Positions 345 through 32,869 of a DNA stretch of 64,000 nt are shown piece after piece; the stretch's first letter is position 1; each line of letters starts with the position of its first letter. Under the pieces are notes generated by a model. The model saw only the letters and a list, made by a program, of their open reading frames with translations. It searched no databases and was not told where the DNA came from. The position numbers and the translations under genes were made by a program. This stretch comes from Progne subis subis (taxonomy: Eukaryota; Chordata; Aves; Passeriformes; Hirundinidae): assembly GCA_022316685.1 (NCBI GenBank), contig JAKJHU010000046.1, positions 3,402,001-3,466,000 of the forward strand. The letters run 5' to 3'.

Positions 345-1369
345 GGTTGAGCACAGAGTTATGGTTAATGGGGTGACATTAGGCTGGTGACGTGTCACTA
401 GTGGGGTTCCACAGGGCTCCATCTCAGGCCCTGTGCTCTTCAGTGTCTTCATCTACAACTTGGACACAGGACCTGAAGGAATACTAAGTTTGCCAACAAT
501 GCTAAATTGGGAGGAATTGTCAACTCCGTTGAGGGCAGAGAGGCCCTGCAGAGAGACCTCAATAATCACTAATTGGGGCAATCACCAATCATATGAAGTG
601 TAAAAAGAGCAAGTGCCAGATTCTGCACCTACGGCAGCACAGCCCTGGTTGTGTGCACACACTGGGGAGGGACGGGCTGGAAAACAGCGCTCTGAAAAGG
701 GACCTGGGGTCCTGGTCCACGGCAAGTGGAACATGAGCCAGCAGTGCCCTGGCAGCCAGGGGAGCCTAACCTGTCCTGGGGGCATCAGGGACAGCATCGC
801 CAGCTGGGGACGGGAGGGGATTGTCCCACTCTGCTCTGCACTGGGGCCACCTCACCTCGAGTGCTGGGGGCAGTTCTGGGCACCACAATATTAAAAAAAC
901 CCAAAAACGTTAAGCTACTGGAGTGTCCAAAGGAGGGCCATGAGAATGCTGAAGGGTCTGTAAGGGAAGATGTATGAGGAGCAGTTGAGGCCATTTGGTT
1001 TAATCAGCCTGGATAAGGGGAAACCTCATTGTAGTCTCCAACATCCTTATCAGGGGAAGCAGAGGTGCAGGTATTGATCTTTTCACTCTTGTGACCAGTG
1101 ACAGGACTCAAGGAAACACCATGAAGCTGAATCAGGGGAGACTTAGGCTGGATATCAGGGAAAGGTTTTTACCCAAGGGGTGGTCAGGTGCTGGAACAGG
1201 CTTCCCAGGACAATGGTGATGGCACTGGTCAGATGGAGTTCAAGAAGTGTTTGGACAATTCGTTCAGGCACATGGTGTGACTCTTAGGGGTGTCCTGTGC
1301 AGGGCTAATAGTTGGACTTGATGAACCTTGTGGCTTCCTTCCAACCCAGCATATTCTGTGATTCTGTGG
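345..1369 (+). mobile_element. CR1 LINE, 5'-truncated, with intact 3' end
   Basis: This is the 3' part of a CR1 (chicken repeat 1) non-LTR retrotransposon. Near 427-455 the plus strand translates to a decayed reverse transcriptase stretch, GPVLFSVFI, followed by the usual CR1 text about the control of overlapping reads (stretches such as 'accatgaagctgaatcagggg'-like at 1120-1140 and 'gggcaccacaatat' at 877-890). Two perfect ATTCTGTG octamers at 1353-1360 and 1361-1368 form the diagnostic CR1 3' terminus. Frameshifts and stops break the frame, so the copy is dead. Short open frames at 613-977 on both strands lie inside the element and are not host genes. The 5' boundary near 345 is approximate. 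CR1 is the dominant LINE of birds, so this is a main support for an avian source. Confidence 0.93.
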
Positions 1370-17200: not shown

Positions 17201-18395
17201 TTAATTATGTATGTATTTCACACATCTGTGATTTTGAGGTCCTGTACTATCAATTTAATAATTCCTTTTCTTAAGGCTTTTTCTGCAAAAAATGTCAGGA
17301 GGTAAAATGAGTGTTTACTAGTCATCTGTCACTTCACTTTTTTTCAGGTTGTTGATTGAGTTGATGTTTACCAGCGTCCTGGGACTAGACTTGGGGAGAA
17401 CTATGCACTGTGTACTTGCCCGGTACTTTACTTCATAGTGCTTGAATCCTTGTAATCCCTTGTCAGTGAGTGCCAGCTACCTGTCAGTTGTTACTACATC
17501 AGGTACACCAGGATTAGAAAAAATTACTTACAGCGCGAGTGTTTAGCTTTAGTACGTGCTCATAAAACTAAGTGTGGGGTGAGGAAATGTTTGGCTTCAA
17601 ACATATGATGTTTTTTACAAGATGGTTATGTTATTCCATATCATCCACATTACTGCTTGTCATAGCACTTTCCTTTTCCCCCCCCACTGGAATTCTGCTC
17701 ACCTGTGGCCTATATAAAATAATTTAGAGATGCTTTTAAGATTTCTCAGCTCCCAAATGAACAATACAATTCTGATAGTACAAAGACAGCACAGTATCTT
17801 GGGCACCAATTTTAGAGAATCCCCTTTAGTGACAGAAGTGCTTTACCTTAAACTGTGCTTGTGGTTGGAAACATGGATTCCCAAACTCTGCATTAATATC
17901 AGTGAAAATGTAGTCTTTCCTCCAGGACATCATTGTCTAGAATGTGAGACAAAGTGATTAATTTTAAAATGAGGCTGAGATACTCACAATTCAGCTCTGG
18001 ACTTCTGTTAAATGCCCTGGAGATTGGCTCAGTGGCCAGCAGAGCCAATACTGCTATACTGCTTCATTTAAAGTATGTCTTTACTGTAAGCGTTTGTTGG
18101 GGCAATGGCAAAATGGAATTATTGGTTACTTCAGAGAGCACATATTAGAAAACAAAAAAAAGTTAAAGAGAAAGTGCACCTTGTCCCATCATCATCTTGT
18201 TGCATCCATCTAATTTTTGTTGTGCCAAAGAGGCATATGCTGCTCTTTTCAATATTAAATGTTGTGCTGTAAAATGACAATGTCACTACCCTCTTTAAAA
18301 TTGCCACTGACGTATTAATTCTGTGCTTACTGTCCTAATGCCTACAGGGGAATTGCCTTTGGGTCTTTTATTTTCATGCTGTTTTATTGAGATTT
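17201..18395. other. Non-coding; possible further decay of the adjacent gypsy relic
   Basis: Unique-looking sequence. This side is downstream of the minus-strand reverse transcriptase relic and would hold RNase H and integrase if the element were complete. I could not recognise either motif. Confidence 0.35.
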
Positions 18396-18399
18396 TTGT

Positions 18400-18905
18400 T
18401 TTATGTTCTTTGGACAGTTCTGCAGAGTGGTGCTGTAGGGTACTGGCCCACACAGCTCATTTGGGAATGTATTCCTTGCAGTTTACCCTTTTTATGCTGA
18501 AGGATGGATATTGATGATGATTTCAACTTTATCATGATCTACCTGCATGCTTTTCTGCTTTTGCTGGAGGGTATGTTGTCTCTCTTAAATGGGATTTACA
18601 TATTTCATGCTCCTTCAGCCCAGCAGCTTTTGCTCTCTTCATAATTGCCTTGAGCCTTTGATCATTTTCTTCTGCTGTTTTACCCCAGCTTAAAATGCCA
18701 TCTGTATCCATACCATCAACAGTTTGTTGTTCTAGTAACAGCCCAAATGGCAGTCTGCAGAAACAGCATTTCTCTAAAGGAGTGTGCAGTCTGCACAAGC
18801 GAGAGCAATGCTTTTTGAATACCACTGATGAATTTACTGTAGATTGTCAATTTTTTTCTTTCTGCAATACTTTTTCTCTTGCAGACAAGAAAATCTATTC
18901 CTTTT
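18400..18905 (-). mobile_element. Fossil Ty3/gypsy LTR-retrotransposon reverse transcriptase
   Basis: A minus-strand frame is open from a TGA at 18849-18847 down to a TGA at 18534-18532. In order it shows CRLHTPLEKCCFCRLPFG (the gypsy block FNTPFGRY-F-RLPFG), then after a gap GMDTDGILSWGKTAEENDQR (the catalytic VDDIL-WGKT-EEHDQRL block), then LKAIMKRAKAAGLK (the RARAAGLKLN helix). A shift to the next frame near 18555 gives KSMQVDHDKVEIIINIHP (18560-18500), matching the gypsy G-(V/M)-PDPDKVEAI-NMPP segment. The order and spacing follow a gypsy reverse transcriptase from fingers/palm to thumb. The region between RLPFG and the active site is deleted and the catalytic YxDD-type box is damaged (DTDG), so the enzyme is dead. 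An in-frame TGA closes the upstream side, where only weak similarity continues to about 18905. No LTRs, RNase H or integrase were found. Retroviral reverse transcriptase is less likely because the EEHDQRL and PDPDKVE blocks are gypsy-type. Confidence 0.85.
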
Positions 18906-18909
18906 TACA

Positions 18910-21900
18910 TTGTTAGTTACCAGTTAGGTCTCTACAGTAGTAAAAGGTTCTTCATCCTTGTCCCACAAAATCAAGGAGTTTCCTAATTTTGATGATTCTT
19001 CTGGTTACCTTATGATTCATAGTTAAGTTTAGCTTTTGATTTAGTGGTCATAGAATTTGAGACAGCACAGCTTTTCCACTTGTATTACTTACTGTGCTCA
19101 TTCTGACTCCTTGTAATAGATCTTTGACACTTCTTTGGTAGTTTGGCTTCCTGGCTCTCCAGTTAATATATTTGCCATGTAATATCCAAGACCGTACTTT
19201 TTTGTATGTTATCATGTGCTTTTTTCATTGGTGTTGTTGCAATGAATACTGAAAGTTGTATTCTTCCCAATTCATGATTTTTCTATATGAACCTGCCTTC
19301 ACTTCCCCCCATCTCTGTTTTTTGGCCTTTAAAAGGAGTTATTTATGGTGGTTTTGATAATATATTGGCTTAAGCTCATCTGTCCAGCTGAAGACTATCA
19401 AATATCTCAATTGTTTTGAAGCTGGTAAAGCATTCATGTTAAACCTTGTTGTGTCCATACCCACCTCGGAGGATTTTGGAGGGCTCTGGTGGTACCCTCC
19501 TGTCCCTGCCTGTTGCTGGTGGCTGCTTTGTCTGCTGCAAGGACTAATCCAGAGCCACACAGTGGGTCTGTGCTATGAGAGGTAGCCTGAAACCTGGCTT
19601 TGGGTGGGAGGTTGGGCATCACCCACAGACAAGCAGGGGTGATAGAGCTCATTGCAGCAGCAGAATGGTTGTGCCAGTCTAATACAACATAGCAAAACTC
19701 TTGTTTCTTATACTGGAAAGCAGTGTTGACCAGCTACTTTGCCATTCACTGTTCTCTCTCCTTCTAACCCTTGGTGGAAATCAAACTTTAGGGCACAGAG
19801 CAGTATGTCTGCCTGCACCAGCTGCCTATTACAACTCTGGTGACAGCCATACCCAGCAGACACAAAATCTGTAAGAAGGGGCCTGTCTGATGGAGGCAGT
19901 GGTTGGGGATGTGCTGGCGGAGAGGTGGCCTTTTAGAGCAGGAGTAATCAAATGCTTATTAGGTTAAAATGGCCACCTTCAGATGCACTTGGGAGCAGAT
20001 GGGAAGCTGGTACAGTACCCAGAGGACAGGTGGGCTGTGCTTATGCCAGGTTGCTCTTCTAAGCAGGTGACTTGCTGTGTCTGGACTAGCTGAGGCTCTC
20101 CAGGGGTCTTTGAGGTGTTTCACTGTTTCTGTCCTAGCAAGAAGGAAATAGAAACCATGTATACACAGTGCAAAGCTGCATTAACAGCTAGGCAGACAGC
20201 TGCCTGCTTTCAGACTAGCGCTGTCCTGAAATGAGCAGTACACTGTGCTTCCAGCAGGGCAGCTCAGCGTAGAGCACTTGCTGCTGCCAAAGGCTGGGAA
20301 CTTCCTTGGTAGGGCTGTGTATTTGTACTTCCTCAGCCGAAGATCAGCAATGGCCTTGGCAAGGAAGGGGCTCCTATTAATGCAGCCTTGCTGTGTAACC
20401 ATTTGTGAACTGCCAGCATTTAGGGCCTTGTCCAAAATCCACTGGGACTGGAGGAATTTTTTGAGCTTTTTTAAGTAAGTGTTTTAAAGCAGGTTCCCTG
20501 TGCCTGCCAAGTTTCCTGGAAGAGAAGCAGCAGTGCTTTCCAGGTTCCAGTGTGCAGCTGCAGGTCTGAGCTGTGCTATGTGCCAGGGTGGCTCCAGCAT
20601 GCAGTGGTCAGATGGCCTGGAGGTGTTAAATATAGACCTGTCAGTGGAGAACAAAACCAAGATAAAGGGATGCTTTGTGGCCAAATCATTTTGTAGCTAA
20701 ACCCACCCACTGCCTGGGAAATACATGCACTTTTGAGGCCAAGTTCTGGCTTCTGAGCAAAACCTGTGCTCCAGACACTTGAAAAATGTCTGGTCACTGT
20801 TTTTCATTAGTAAGAGTCATAATACCTTCCAATTTACATCATGCTGAGATACATATGCTCAGCTCAGTAGCTCCATAAATGAGGATGGGGAGACTTAAAT
20901 GGTAAAAGATTTCCATTTTCCTTGTCAACACTCGCCCCCAAAGAACCCTCAAACAGATTGAAATTATGTGGAAGAGAAAGAGGGGTTTGTGGAGAGGAGC
21001 TGGTTCTCTTTACAGGGTATATGGTGAGTTGGGTTTTGTTCAGGTAGGAAGAAAGCTAAATGTTCCCACCCACCTTGTCACATTCAGAGCTACAGGGACA
21101 ATTACTGATAGCTAGTCTTCCCTCAAAGACTAAGGACATCTGGAAAGGAAGAATACCCTGTCAGAACAATTCATTAAAAAAAAGATAAAATTCTTCAAAA
21201 CCATTAACCAGACACACTGGTAATTGGTTGAAGACATTTTCCTTACTTGGTTTCCAGCTCTCTTAAACTCAAGAGGTAGCCCTCAGGAACAGACTTGATA
21301 CATTGAGATGTACTTGGCTCAGACACAGTTACTGCTTTATCTTCTCAGTGGTCATCAGGAAGATCTACTTCATCATCTGCATGACCAGTAAAGTGGGTGA
21401 TGGAAACTTTGGTTCAAAAAGCAGCACACATGGGTGAATTCTGTTTCTAAGAACTTGAAATAAACTGTTATGCTGGATCTTCTGTCTGTTCTGGCTGTTC
21501 TTGGTGGAACAAGTAGCTTCTAAAGAAACAGTTCATCTTTGCGTATATAAAATCTCTTTGATGCTTCTCTCATTTTCTTAAAACAGTCTTAAAACTGAGG
21601 AATAAATTGAACCCATAGGATGGGGAGCTGCTTATGGTCTCATCCTGTGCTATGCTTATTAAGCGTTTTCTAGAGTAGTAGGTGCCTTCACATTATTAGA
21701 GAAAACAGGATGGTTATGGGGTCACCAGGTCAGTATGCAGTCTGTCACAGCCACCACCTAAACTTGAAATAGACTGTGATATACTTTGAGACACAGAAAA
21801 TACAAAATGAAGCAGAGTTAAAACTCAGCTGAGCAAGAAAGGCTGGTAGAACCTCTTTTTCCTTCTCTGTCCCAGATGAAGATCAACAAATAACACCTGT

Positions 21901-25199: not shown

Positions 25200-25585
25200 G
25201 GATAGGAAAACACATCAACAGCTTTTGGAAAAGTGGGGATGCTTCTCATGTGGTTTGGCTTTGCAGTTGATGGACTGGATAGCTCCTAAACGTCCTTTGA
25301 AATCAACTGAGGATGATTTAAGGTTCAAATCCAGTCATGGTAGGGCTTGTTTTTAATCTGAAGGAGAAATTTGGAATTGTGGGTGTTTCCTAACACCGTA
25401 TCTTCCCTCTGGCTCTGACTACATCAGCTACTTTTCATTTGTATTCATCCTACTGTGTATGTCTCCCCTCCGCTGTTCTTCGAGTACGCTGGTGTTCTCC
25501 CCAAATGGTAGGTTTTTGGTTTGATTGTTTGTTTTTGAAATTGGCACAGGTTTCACTGCCCACCCAGTTCATGAGGCTGTGTCTG
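25200..25585. other. Non-coding, nothing recognised
   Basis: Unique-looking sequence between two MIR-type elements. A 109-codon frame at 25027-25356 overlaps the SINE and is not considered a gene. Confidence 0.5.
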
Positions 25586-25589
25586 TTCA

Positions 25590-25715
25590 TTTAAGGAGTA
25601 CTATTCCCATTTTACGGAAGGAAGCATGGCATAAAATGGCCCGGCTCCATTAGTCTCCTCTGGTCTCTGCCCGAAAGCAGTGATTGCACTAGGTAGCTCT
25701 CACTCCTGTGAACGC
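25590..25715 (-). mobile_element. MIR-type SINE fragment, reverse orientation
   Basis: tactattcccattttacgga (25599-25618) followed by ggaagcatggcataaaatgg corresponds to the reverse complement of the MIR centre, where the consensus reads ACTATTATCCCCATTTTACAGATGAGGAAACTGAGGC. Only the core is recognisable. Confidence 0.55.
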
Positions 25716-25789
25716 TCAGCGTGGTGTTACCAGCACCGTCAGGTGGGTCATCAGCGGTATGGTCCCTGGATGCCAGGCCCATTCCCTGT

Positions 25790-26640
25790 CATCCTGTGTT
25801 CGGGCTGGCCGCTCGAGTGCGTGGGACCCAGCCCCGACCTGCCTTCCTGAGGGTTCGTGGCGGCAGTGAGCGCTGACCCTGCGGCTGTCGGGTTTTGTTG
25901 CATGAGGAGGTGGCTGTGCTCCCTCCCTGCACGTTTCGCAGCTCCCTCCCCGCAGGGGTGCAGGTGCTGACAGGGCTGTTGGGCGAACAGCCTGCTCCCG
26001 GGTCTCCCGGGGACGGGATGAAGCTGGCACTCCCTGGAGCCTGGGGAGAGAGCGGATCAGAGGCGGCTGCCTCCAGAGCCCTCGCTCAGGCTCCTCCCTG
26101 CTCTTTTTCCAGGATTCCCTCGGGGGCGGGGAGGTGCTCAGCGGTCCGGGCATCATTCCGCCCGGGAGCGCCGCAGACCTCGGGGCTGGAGCCTCGCCGC
26201 GGCGTCGCTCACGCTCCTTCCTCCTTTCGCGCTCGCTGCCTGTGGCCCTGGCAGGCGACGGGAAGTGCCAAGGATGAGAGCAGGTCCCTGGTGTCTCCTT
26301 TAGCTGCCATTGCAGTTAAATTAGAACAGAGACCTGCGAATAAAGCACCCCCTCCCCTACCCCCCCCTCCCCGCTGCCAGAAGCTCTGCATTTCACTCAA
26401 GTGCCCACCGGGGAATTTGCCCATTTACTCTTGTTATTTGCATGATAAAGGCTGTTCTGCTGCCTTTCCTGCAGCCTGCCTTAAAAAGGCAGGGAAGTTG
26501 GAGCAGACGGCTAGGAGAGCCGGAGAGGTCAGGGCATCCAGCCCCGAGCCCTCCGCCCCCGGCAGAGCCGCCGAGGGTGCTAGGAAGGAGGGAGGAGGAA
26601 GGCTTTCCCCAGCCCGAGGTTTTGCTTTCCAGTTTTGTTC
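25790..26640. promoter_or_regulatory. Orphan CpG-rich island, candidate promoter
   Basis: GC content and CpG frequency rise sharply against a CpG-poor background, with many CG dinucleotides at 25800-26000 and 26100-26270 and again at 26500-26580. This is how unmethylated bird and mammal promoters look. No TATA box or obvious first coding exon is visible, as expected for a dispersed CpG promoter. A GC-driven 250-codon plus frame (25895-26647) and a 146-codon minus frame (25716-26156) overlap in the island and carry no domain, so I do not call them genes. A possible splice donor, aaag|gtagct, lies at about 26805-26812 on the plus strand. Orientation of any transcript is unknown. An exapted GC-rich enhancer is the alternative. 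Confidence 0.55.
26348..26372 (-). other. Strong G-quadruplex motif inside the CpG island
   Basis: Plus-strand C-runs of 5, 4, 8 and 4 are separated by 1, 2 and 1 bases, so the minus strand has four long G-runs with minimal loops. It lies about 65 bp before an ATTTGCAT octamer (about 26437-26444). Confidence 0.8.
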
Positions 26641-26644
26641 TCAT

Positions 26645-27715
26645 TAGTGGCTCCGTGCATTCCCTTCGCTCCTCACAATGACGCTTATTCTGGCACAGAA
26701 ATGTGCCCTCTGGGATTTACTGAGAGAGAAGGAGCGAGGGAGAGAGAATAGGCGTTTATCCTGCTGCATCCAAGCTGCCTTAGCTGAAACTCAGGATGGA
26801 AGCGTAAAGGTAGCTGTAAACCGTTATGGCTGCACCACCCCAATCGTGGATTGATCACCTGGAGCAGTCTCCGTGTTTTGCTAGCTTTGGCCTGGCATCT
26901 TCTGCCAGGTGTTTTTGAAATGTAATTTTCTTGGAATAAGATGAAGTGGAAATATTCTGCAGTGATATGCCACTATTGGTTCAGTTTTCACCCTGGTTTT
27001 GACTTAGATGAAGAACCTCATGTCCCTTGTGACTAAGGAAAATTTACCAAAATGAAAACATGACTTTGTAGAAGCAGCACAAATTTTGAGACCTAATCAG
27101 CAGTTAGGAAATTATAGTTTGGCTAGCTTTATGGGGCAAGGATGCCTGGTGCACAGCACTGACCCATTCCCATGCTTTCTGGCCTGATGATGTCTGTGAT
27201 GCCTTTCTTGTGCCTGTGATGAGGCCAGTTGGCCACACAAGAGCTGCAGTAGTGACACTTTACCTCTTACCAAGACAATCCCCTGCTGCCTGCTGAGCTG
27301 GCATCGCACGTACTTTGTGGTTGTGGAACTCTCTCTAGCCAGGCCAGAGTCACGTACCATAGTGTGGGCGCACCCTTAAGAGTCTGTCTCGCTCAAACAC
27401 CTCTCAGCCAGTGACCCTCCCTGTCAGCAAGTGCCACCAACCCCAGCACTCAGTCTCTGAAGCACTCTAGCTGTGTTGACTATAGCTGCCCTCAGCCTTC
27501 TCCCAAATGCTACAACAGAAAGAAACTAAAGGCTATAGAGATGGTCTGGAGAAAAATGTCCCCTCTCCTGTCTAGGGTGTGTTGAACTGTGTCATGTGAT
27601 CTTTTTTCTATGTTTTCCTTCCCTTTTTATTCTTCTCTTTTATTTTTAAGTGGCTTTGCTGCATACTGTGCGTACAATGTGACTGAAATTTGGAAGCTAT
27701 CTTCATTCATTGTGC
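26645..27715. other. Flank of the CpG island, non-coding
   Basis: GC content falls quickly. The first 100 bases (26645-26745) are a non-repetitive block that may belong to the regulatory element. No exon is assigned. Confidence 0.4.
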
Positions 27716-32809: not shown

Positions 32810-32867
32810 GACACCTTCATGGAGAGACAGACAATGGAGACACCTTCATGGAGAGACAGACAATGGA
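32810..32867. repeat. Perfect 29-bp tandem duplication (two copies)
   Basis: The unit starting gacaccttcatggagagaca occupies 32810-32838 and is repeated exactly at 32839-32867. The lack of divergence suggests a recent duplication or an ongoing minisatellite. Confidence 0.95.
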
Positions 32868-32869
32868 GG

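What the first reader, a model, noticed from the sequence alone, without database searches (positions are those of the whole stretch)
18400..18905. Fossil Ty3/gypsy reverse transcriptase in a bird-like genome
The minus strand carries, in gypsy order, RLPFG, the damaged active-site block DTDGILSWGKTAEENDQR, the RAKAAGLK helix and, after one frameshift, MQVDHDKVEIIINIHP. Ty3/gypsy elements are generally regarded as scarce or extinct in birds, so a recognisable relic is notable. The roughly 105-codon stretch between stops is longer than expected for neutral decay of a very old insertion, so either the insertion is not so old or the sequence has been constrained.
Basis: partly seen in the sequence, partly recalled or inferred. 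Interest (0 to 1): 0.8.

Follow-up and report, generated by a model that had tools for sequence, protein, structure and literature searches.

The report
Decayed Ty3/gypsy relic in bird genome
A bird genome carries a worn-out piece of an ancient jumping gene (a Ty3/gypsy reverse transcriptase); it is one of a small scattered family of similarly worn copies, and nothing here shows that it still does anything.

Summary
Window 18387-18905 (minus strand) encodes part of a Ty3/gypsy reverse transcriptase. The 104-codon frame is the only one of 1763 window frames to match a gypsy RT profile (E 4e-14; next 1.2). A gammaretroviral profile does not match that frame.

The host has 1.17 Gb and 133 feather-type keratin matches: very likely a bird. 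The frame is single-copy. Eight near relatives lie in unnamed public contigs; seven cover and share its internal deletion, and all carry Gly for the second catalytic Asp.

New here: the genome holds at least 17 further loci of one decayed gypsy family, plus two more divergent gypsy relics. The window DNA matches this family, mainly in its 5' part.

The ORF-length argument fails: 28 window frames, this one included, are as long, and the window copy's branch is not shorter than its siblings'. A 56-residue core varies less among relatives than the segment after it, but that test was post hoc and blind to synonymous sites. Exaptation is unproven.

The parts
18387..18905 (-). Whole recognisable Ty3/gypsy RT relic
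   Evidence: Upper end by DNA alignment with sibling loci; lower end by tblastn of P0005
18535..18846 (-). 104-codon open frame: remnant of the stretch before TP, RLPFG block, damaged YxDD block (second Asp read as Gly) and the following helix; about 13 residues (10-15 by alignment) missing between RLPFG and YxDD
18742..18756 (-). RLPFG motif
18655..18708 (-). DTDGILSWGKTAEENDQR: decayed catalytic block plus the following gypsy-type stretch
18498..18554 (-). Next RT segment (KSMQVDHDKVEIIINIHPS) in another frame; frame change near 18555
   Evidence: tblastn of P0003-P0006 and P0008, which are open across this point in other contigs
18387..18500 (-). Further 3' stretch homologous to the end of P0005, with a gap of nine residues and two stops in the window copy
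18735..18910 (-). 5' part of the relic, shared at DNA level with the dispersed family (64-73% identity to 11 family loci)
   Evidence: 10 of 13 loci compared are above all 200 shuffles

Best explanation
This is an inert fossil. A Ty3/gypsy LTR retrotransposon family was once active in an ancestor of this bird and scattered copies by reverse transcription and integration (inferred from the family, not shown). The copies then decayed by substitution, deletion and frameshift. The window copy is a fragment of about 520 bp from the RT domain. It lost part of its RT and its second catalytic Asp before the lineages represented by its public relatives split, and no LTR or other pol domain can be recognised beside it. 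Today it most likely does nothing and drifts.
For: Gypsy identity; not ERV. Second catalytic Asp read as Gly in the window and all eight relatives, and a block missing after RLPFG in the window and the seven relatives that cover it. The relic frame occurs once in the genome (2 candidates scored). A dispersed decayed family in the same genome: 10 places by protein, 14 by DNA, 17 in union, query loci included; two further gypsy relics. Window DNA 63-68% identical to 11 family loci over 379-532 bases (10 above all 200 letter shuffles, L031 above 199). No direct repeat of 30 nt or more brackets the relic in 8.4-28.9 kb, and no Pfam domain in three minus frames of 14-23 kb. ORF length ordinary for the window (28 as long, itself included). 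Terminal branch long, not short.
Against: Among the nine related sequences, residues 22-77 vary at 8 of 56 columns against 12 of 20 in residues 78-97 (p 1.8e-4, boundaries chosen after seeing the data), and the few core changes lean conservative (p about 0.06). Only the window copy keeps the post-YxDD segment recognisably (23 bits; the 13 other loci 3 or less), though the others were found by their 5' part. The DNA kinship is carried by the 5' part: for 18500-18734 alone only 3 of 13 loci exceed all 200 shuffles. Two loci, L014 and L017, do not match the window DNA.
Confidence: 0.83

Rival explanations
1. The core of the relic was exapted in birds, either as a short coding exon or as a conserved non-coding element, and has been held by purifying selection since; the flanks of the element decayed freely.
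For: Uneven variability along the nine related sequences and mildly conservative changes in the core; five of the eight relatives (P0003-P0006, P0008) are open across the point where the window is frameshifted. Ancient TE protein fossils, Gypsy among them, are reported to be strongly conserved and probably exapted in vertebrates (PMC9004415, abstract and passages seen).
Against: The relatives come from a database of predicted proteins, so open copies are over-represented. Predicted starts and ends differ among them. The window copy is not slower than its siblings overall. ORF length is ordinary. No DNA of the relatives could be fetched, so synonymous sites were not seen.
Confidence: 0.13
2. 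The stretch derives from an endogenous retrovirus rather than from Ty3/gypsy.
For: The genome is rich in RTs of which the one examined is gammaretrovirus-like. A profile of five of them has as its best window hit another frame overlapping the relic, at E 0.089.
Against: That profile does not reach E 10 for the relic frame, while the Ty3-type profile gives 4e-14. The A2 pieces are closest to Ty3 RT 4ol8 (1.2e-33), then 8r0s (8.6e-29, recalled as a caulimovirus RT), then 7ksf and 7o0h (4.5e-17, 1.5e-15, recalled as foamy virus RTs) and HIV-2 RT (about 1e-10).
Confidence: 0.02
3. Chance resemblance without homology.
For: No Pfam hit; direct database hits to generic RTs only E 0.045 or worse.
Against: Unique strong profile match, five gypsy references hit the same stretch, and DNA-level kinship with a dispersed gypsy family.
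Confidence: 0.01

Closest known systems
Ty3/gypsy (Metaviridae) reverse transcriptase, e.g. Ty3 RT (PDB 4ol8)
   Same: Order of the TP..RLPFG, YxDD and GKT.EE.D.RL blocks
   Different: A block of about 13 residues is missing, the second catalytic Asp is a Gly, there is a frameshift, and no LTR or RNase H was recognised (at Pfam sensitivity)
Dispersed gypsy relics of the same genome (17 places on C2, C1113, C2231, C2143, C224, C1112, C2764, C1224, C2109, C313, C2276, C2121, C1668, C391, C557)
   Same: 63-68% DNA identity of the window to the 11 of these 17 that were compared; similar decay
   Different: The loci compared keep mainly the 5' RT part; the window keeps the post-YxDD part as well. 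Six of the 17 were not compared with the window
Ancient Gypsy protein fossils of tetrapods (PMC9004415)
   Same: Short, degraded, scattered Gypsy protein remains in amniotes (passages seen)
   Different: Those are dated before the amphibian/amniote split by cross-genome alignment; this relic could not be dated that way. The genomes named there are human, alligator, turtle, coelacanth, chimera and frog, not a bird
MamGyp repeats of mammals (Repbase; PMC5753468)
   Same: Extinct Gypsy elements of an amniote class (passages seen)

Membership tests
Ty3/gypsy retrotransposon | RT domain closer to Ty3 than to retroviruses | tested here: met
Ty3/gypsy retrotransposon | RT catalytic motif YxDD intact | tested here: not met
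   Second Asp is Gly in the window and all eight relatives: a dead derivative
Ty3/gypsy retrotransposon | LTRs on both sides | tested here: inconclusive
   No direct repeat of 30 nt or more brackets the relic in 8.4-28.9 kb; that tool can miss copies under about 65% alike or with indels
Ty3/gypsy retrotransposon | RNase H and integrase downstream of RT | tested here: inconclusive
   No Pfam domain in three minus frames of 14-23 kb, but Pfam also misses the RT itself
Dispersed gypsy family of this genome | DNA similarity to several copies elsewhere | tested here: met
   Of 13 loci, 10 above 200 of 200 shuffles, one (L031) above 199, two (L014, L017) not; for the 3' part alone 3 of 13
Endogenous retrovirus | Match to retroviral RT profile | tested here: not met
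   No match of the relic frame at E<=10; an overlapping frame at E 0.089
Exapted TE gene or element | Purifying selection (dN/dS below 1 or conservation above neutral) | not testable with these tools
   Relatives available only as proteins; amino-acid pattern suggestive only
Exapted TE gene or element | Conserved start, stop or exon ends | tested here: not met
   Predicted starts and ends differ among the relatives

The most novel reading that the evidence does not exclude
Birds inherited a Ty3/gypsy family that may be missing from avian repeat lists (not checked here), and one copy, this one, had its RT core captured for a host use (coding exon or regulatory element) early in bird evolution. 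That would explain why residues 22-77 barely change among relatives while the rest decays.
Probability: 0.1. Interest if true: 0.62.

Novelty: new member of a known kind. Interest (0 to 1): 0.36.

Why it matters
Bird genomes are described as low in retrotransposon diversity (PMC5486457, passages seen). A set of about twenty gypsy relics in one bird genome is direct evidence that Ty3/gypsy elements lived in the bird lineage or its ancestors and died out there. It also supplies markers for orthology dating against crocodiles and turtles. If the core proved constrained, it would be a rare host-captured gypsy RT fragment.

Tried and rejected
ORF length as evidence of constraint: rejected, 28 frames in the window, this one included, are as long.

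Pfam and PDB searches with the relic or its A1 profile: no useful hit. DNA of the relatives: scans of viral contigs and genome contigs for peptide patterns confirmed none, and the metagenome collection has a cap of zero, so it was not asked. A longer query headed by P0005 found no further relatives. Host identification by a cytochrome b fragment and a lysozyme exon was not decisive (the best solved matches were lysozymes whose species the listing does not give, then human ones); feather-type keratin was. Rfam on the window: nothing. Searches read L014-L016 on the wrong strand; one search replaces that part, and the ERV profile part stands. No structure prediction was run. The gene around the relic was not identified.

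Full report
Observation. The frame 18846-18535 has 104 codons between stops, and the MQVDHDKVEIIINIHP piece lies in another frame at 18548-18501. Significance was tested in three ways. A profile (A2) of five Ty3-type RT pieces, searched against all 1763 stop-to-stop frames of 25 residues or more in the window, gives E 4.3e-14 for this frame and 1.2 for the next. Profile-profile comparison of the relic and its relatives with A2 gives probability 98%, E 1.7e-13. tblastn of each of the five pieces against the window finds the same stretch (E 2e-8 to 1.6e-6). The A2 pieces were picked as the five hits that followed the near relatives in a search with the relic profile, where they scored only E 0.045 to 4.9, so the later E-values are optimistic. 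All five are RVT_1 by Pfam. The A2 profile's best solved structure is Ty3 RT (4ol8, 1.2e-33), followed by 8r0s (8.6e-29, recalled as caulimovirus), 7ksf and 7o0h (4.5e-17, 1.5e-15, recalled as foamy viruses) and HIV-2 RT (about 1e-10). Pfam itself finds nothing in the relic.

Anatomy. Reading with A2: the remains of the stretch before TP, then TPLEKCCFCRLPFGL, then a gap of about 13 residues against the references, then DTDGILSWGKTAEENDQRLKAIMKRAKAAGLK. The second Asp of the catalytic pair is a Gly. P0005, a relative from another contig, carries the homology on to 18387, with a gap of nine residues and two stops in the window copy. DNA of sibling loci carries it up to about 18905. No direct repeat of 30 nt or more brackets the relic in 8.4-28.9 kb, and no Pfam domain was found on the minus strand at 14-23 kb (a weak test).

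Relatives elsewhere. Among 5.8 billion predicted proteins, 8 of 9 candidates match, at 82-91% identity over 49-92% of the query. They sit in unnamed contigs (sources lgn, jgi, ena), presumably other birds; their species is not shown. The seven that cover the deletion share it, and all eight share the Gly. In the window genome the frame occurs once (2 candidates scored), so these are most simply orthologues of one dead insertion. Two profile searches found no further close relatives.

The host. The genome has 1.166 Gb in 2896 contigs and 133 matches to the feather-type keratin family (150 of 163 candidates scored). The window has one perfect pair of the octamer that I recall as a CR1 tail mark, at 1353 (0.27 matches with up to two mismatches expected by chance). 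A bird is very likely; the species is unknown.

A family, not a singleton. Gypsy RT queries found other relics: C2498, and C2675, C2 and C1113 (150 of 1722 candidates scored). Their A2 scores are 63-80 bits. A piece of the C1113 relic found 10 places, itself included, of 28 candidates. The DNA of the C2 relic found 14 of 14, itself included. The union, counted by me from the two tables, is 17 places; with C2498, C2675 and the window there are 20. The matches are all partial. Stops inside the 10 protein matches number 0 (the query locus), 1, 0, 2, 2, 5, 2, 2, 1, 0. Of 13 loci whose DNA was compared with the window, 10 exceed all 200 letter shuffles, L031 exceeds 199, while L014 (25 of 200 reach it) and L017 (60 of 200) do not. 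The kinship is carried by the 5' part: 18735-18910 alone exceeds all 200 for 10 of 13, but 18500-18734 alone for only 3 of 13 (L026, L029, L037; L027 is reached by 1 of 200). L014 and L017 do align above shuffles with some siblings, so they look like more distant gypsy relatives. The first gypsy query also brought 104 matches at E 5e-8 to 2e-6 and 45 weaker ones. One of the 104 was examined and is close to MLV-type RT (E 4e-43), and a profile of five of them does not match the relic frame.

Age and constraint. Pairwise JC distances between family loci, for the pairs that pass the shuffle test, are about 0.28-0.53; the window to eight of them is 0.36-0.47. With a neutral rate near 2e-9 per site and year (recalled, not from a call) that is very roughly 70-130 million years, and local alignment biases it downward. 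In a tree of nine loci the window has the second-longest terminal branch, and its midpoint depth of 0.572 ties for the greatest (others 0.377-0.466, L030 0.572; supports only 29-38). That alignment is mostly the 5' part. So there is no sign that this copy evolved more slowly than its siblings overall. ORF length is ordinary: 28 frames in the window, this one included, have 104 codons or more. Against this, among the nine related sequences (seven to nine per column), residues 22-77 vary at 8 of 56 columns and residues 78-97 at 12 of 20 (p 1.8e-4; limits chosen after the fact). The eight core changes are somewhat conservative (p 0.056-0.063), while those after the core are not (p 0.77-0.81). The window is also the only one of 14 loci that keeps the post-YxDD segment (23.2 bits; best other 2.9), but the others were found by their 5' part. 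These hints cannot be settled without the DNA of the relatives, which the scans made did not give.

Literature. PMC9004415 (abstract and passages) reports Gypsy protein fossils of tetrapod age with strong conservation, from genomes that, in the passages seen, do not include a bird. PMC5753468 (passages) lists MamGyp and says that BEL and DIRS have not been detected in bird genomes. PMC5486457 (passages) names Gypsy among the LTR clades of reptiles and fish and reports low retrotransposon diversity in birds. PMC5006616 (passages) screened chicken with Gypsy Database references; the passages seen do not report a gypsy element there. PMC3424704 (passages) covers GIN genes, which are integrase-derived. 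Passages of PMC8310711, PMC7561263, PMC7922186, PMC4299795 and PMC9025612 did not bear on gypsy relics in birds. Six answered searches listed no paper that I recognised as describing this bird family. This does not show that none exists.

Verdict. A real Ty3/gypsy RT fossil in a bird genome, one of a small decayed family, most likely inert.

Noticed in passing
L017 (G000:C2498:1455201-1455500): Another gypsy RT relic, 100 codons without a stop; best solved matches 8r0s (recalled as caulimovirus) and Ty3 RT. Its DNA does not match the window but aligns above shuffles with some siblings.
   Followed up: partly
L014 (G000:C2675:8218565-8218876, minus): A further gypsy RT relic that keeps an APNIFQRK block, with three stops.
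   Followed up: partly
L003-L013 and 93 further places: A group of 104 RT matches of which one examined is MLV-like; open frames of 234 to 1183 codons suggest recently active ERVs.
   Followed up: no
window 25501-27000: CpG-island-like stretch (CpG observed/expected up to 0.66, GC up to 0.69), a possible promoter about 7 kb from the relic.
   Followed up: no
window 1353-1368: ATTCTGTGATTCTGTG, which I recall as a CR1 3' tail mark.
   Followed up: no
window 32810-32868: Perfect two-copy tandem repeat of a 29-base unit.
   Followed up: no
L018 (G000:C2120:12563303-12563494): The only cytochrome b match in the assembly (11 candidates scored) is a short fragment with stops, apparently nuclear.
   Followed up: no
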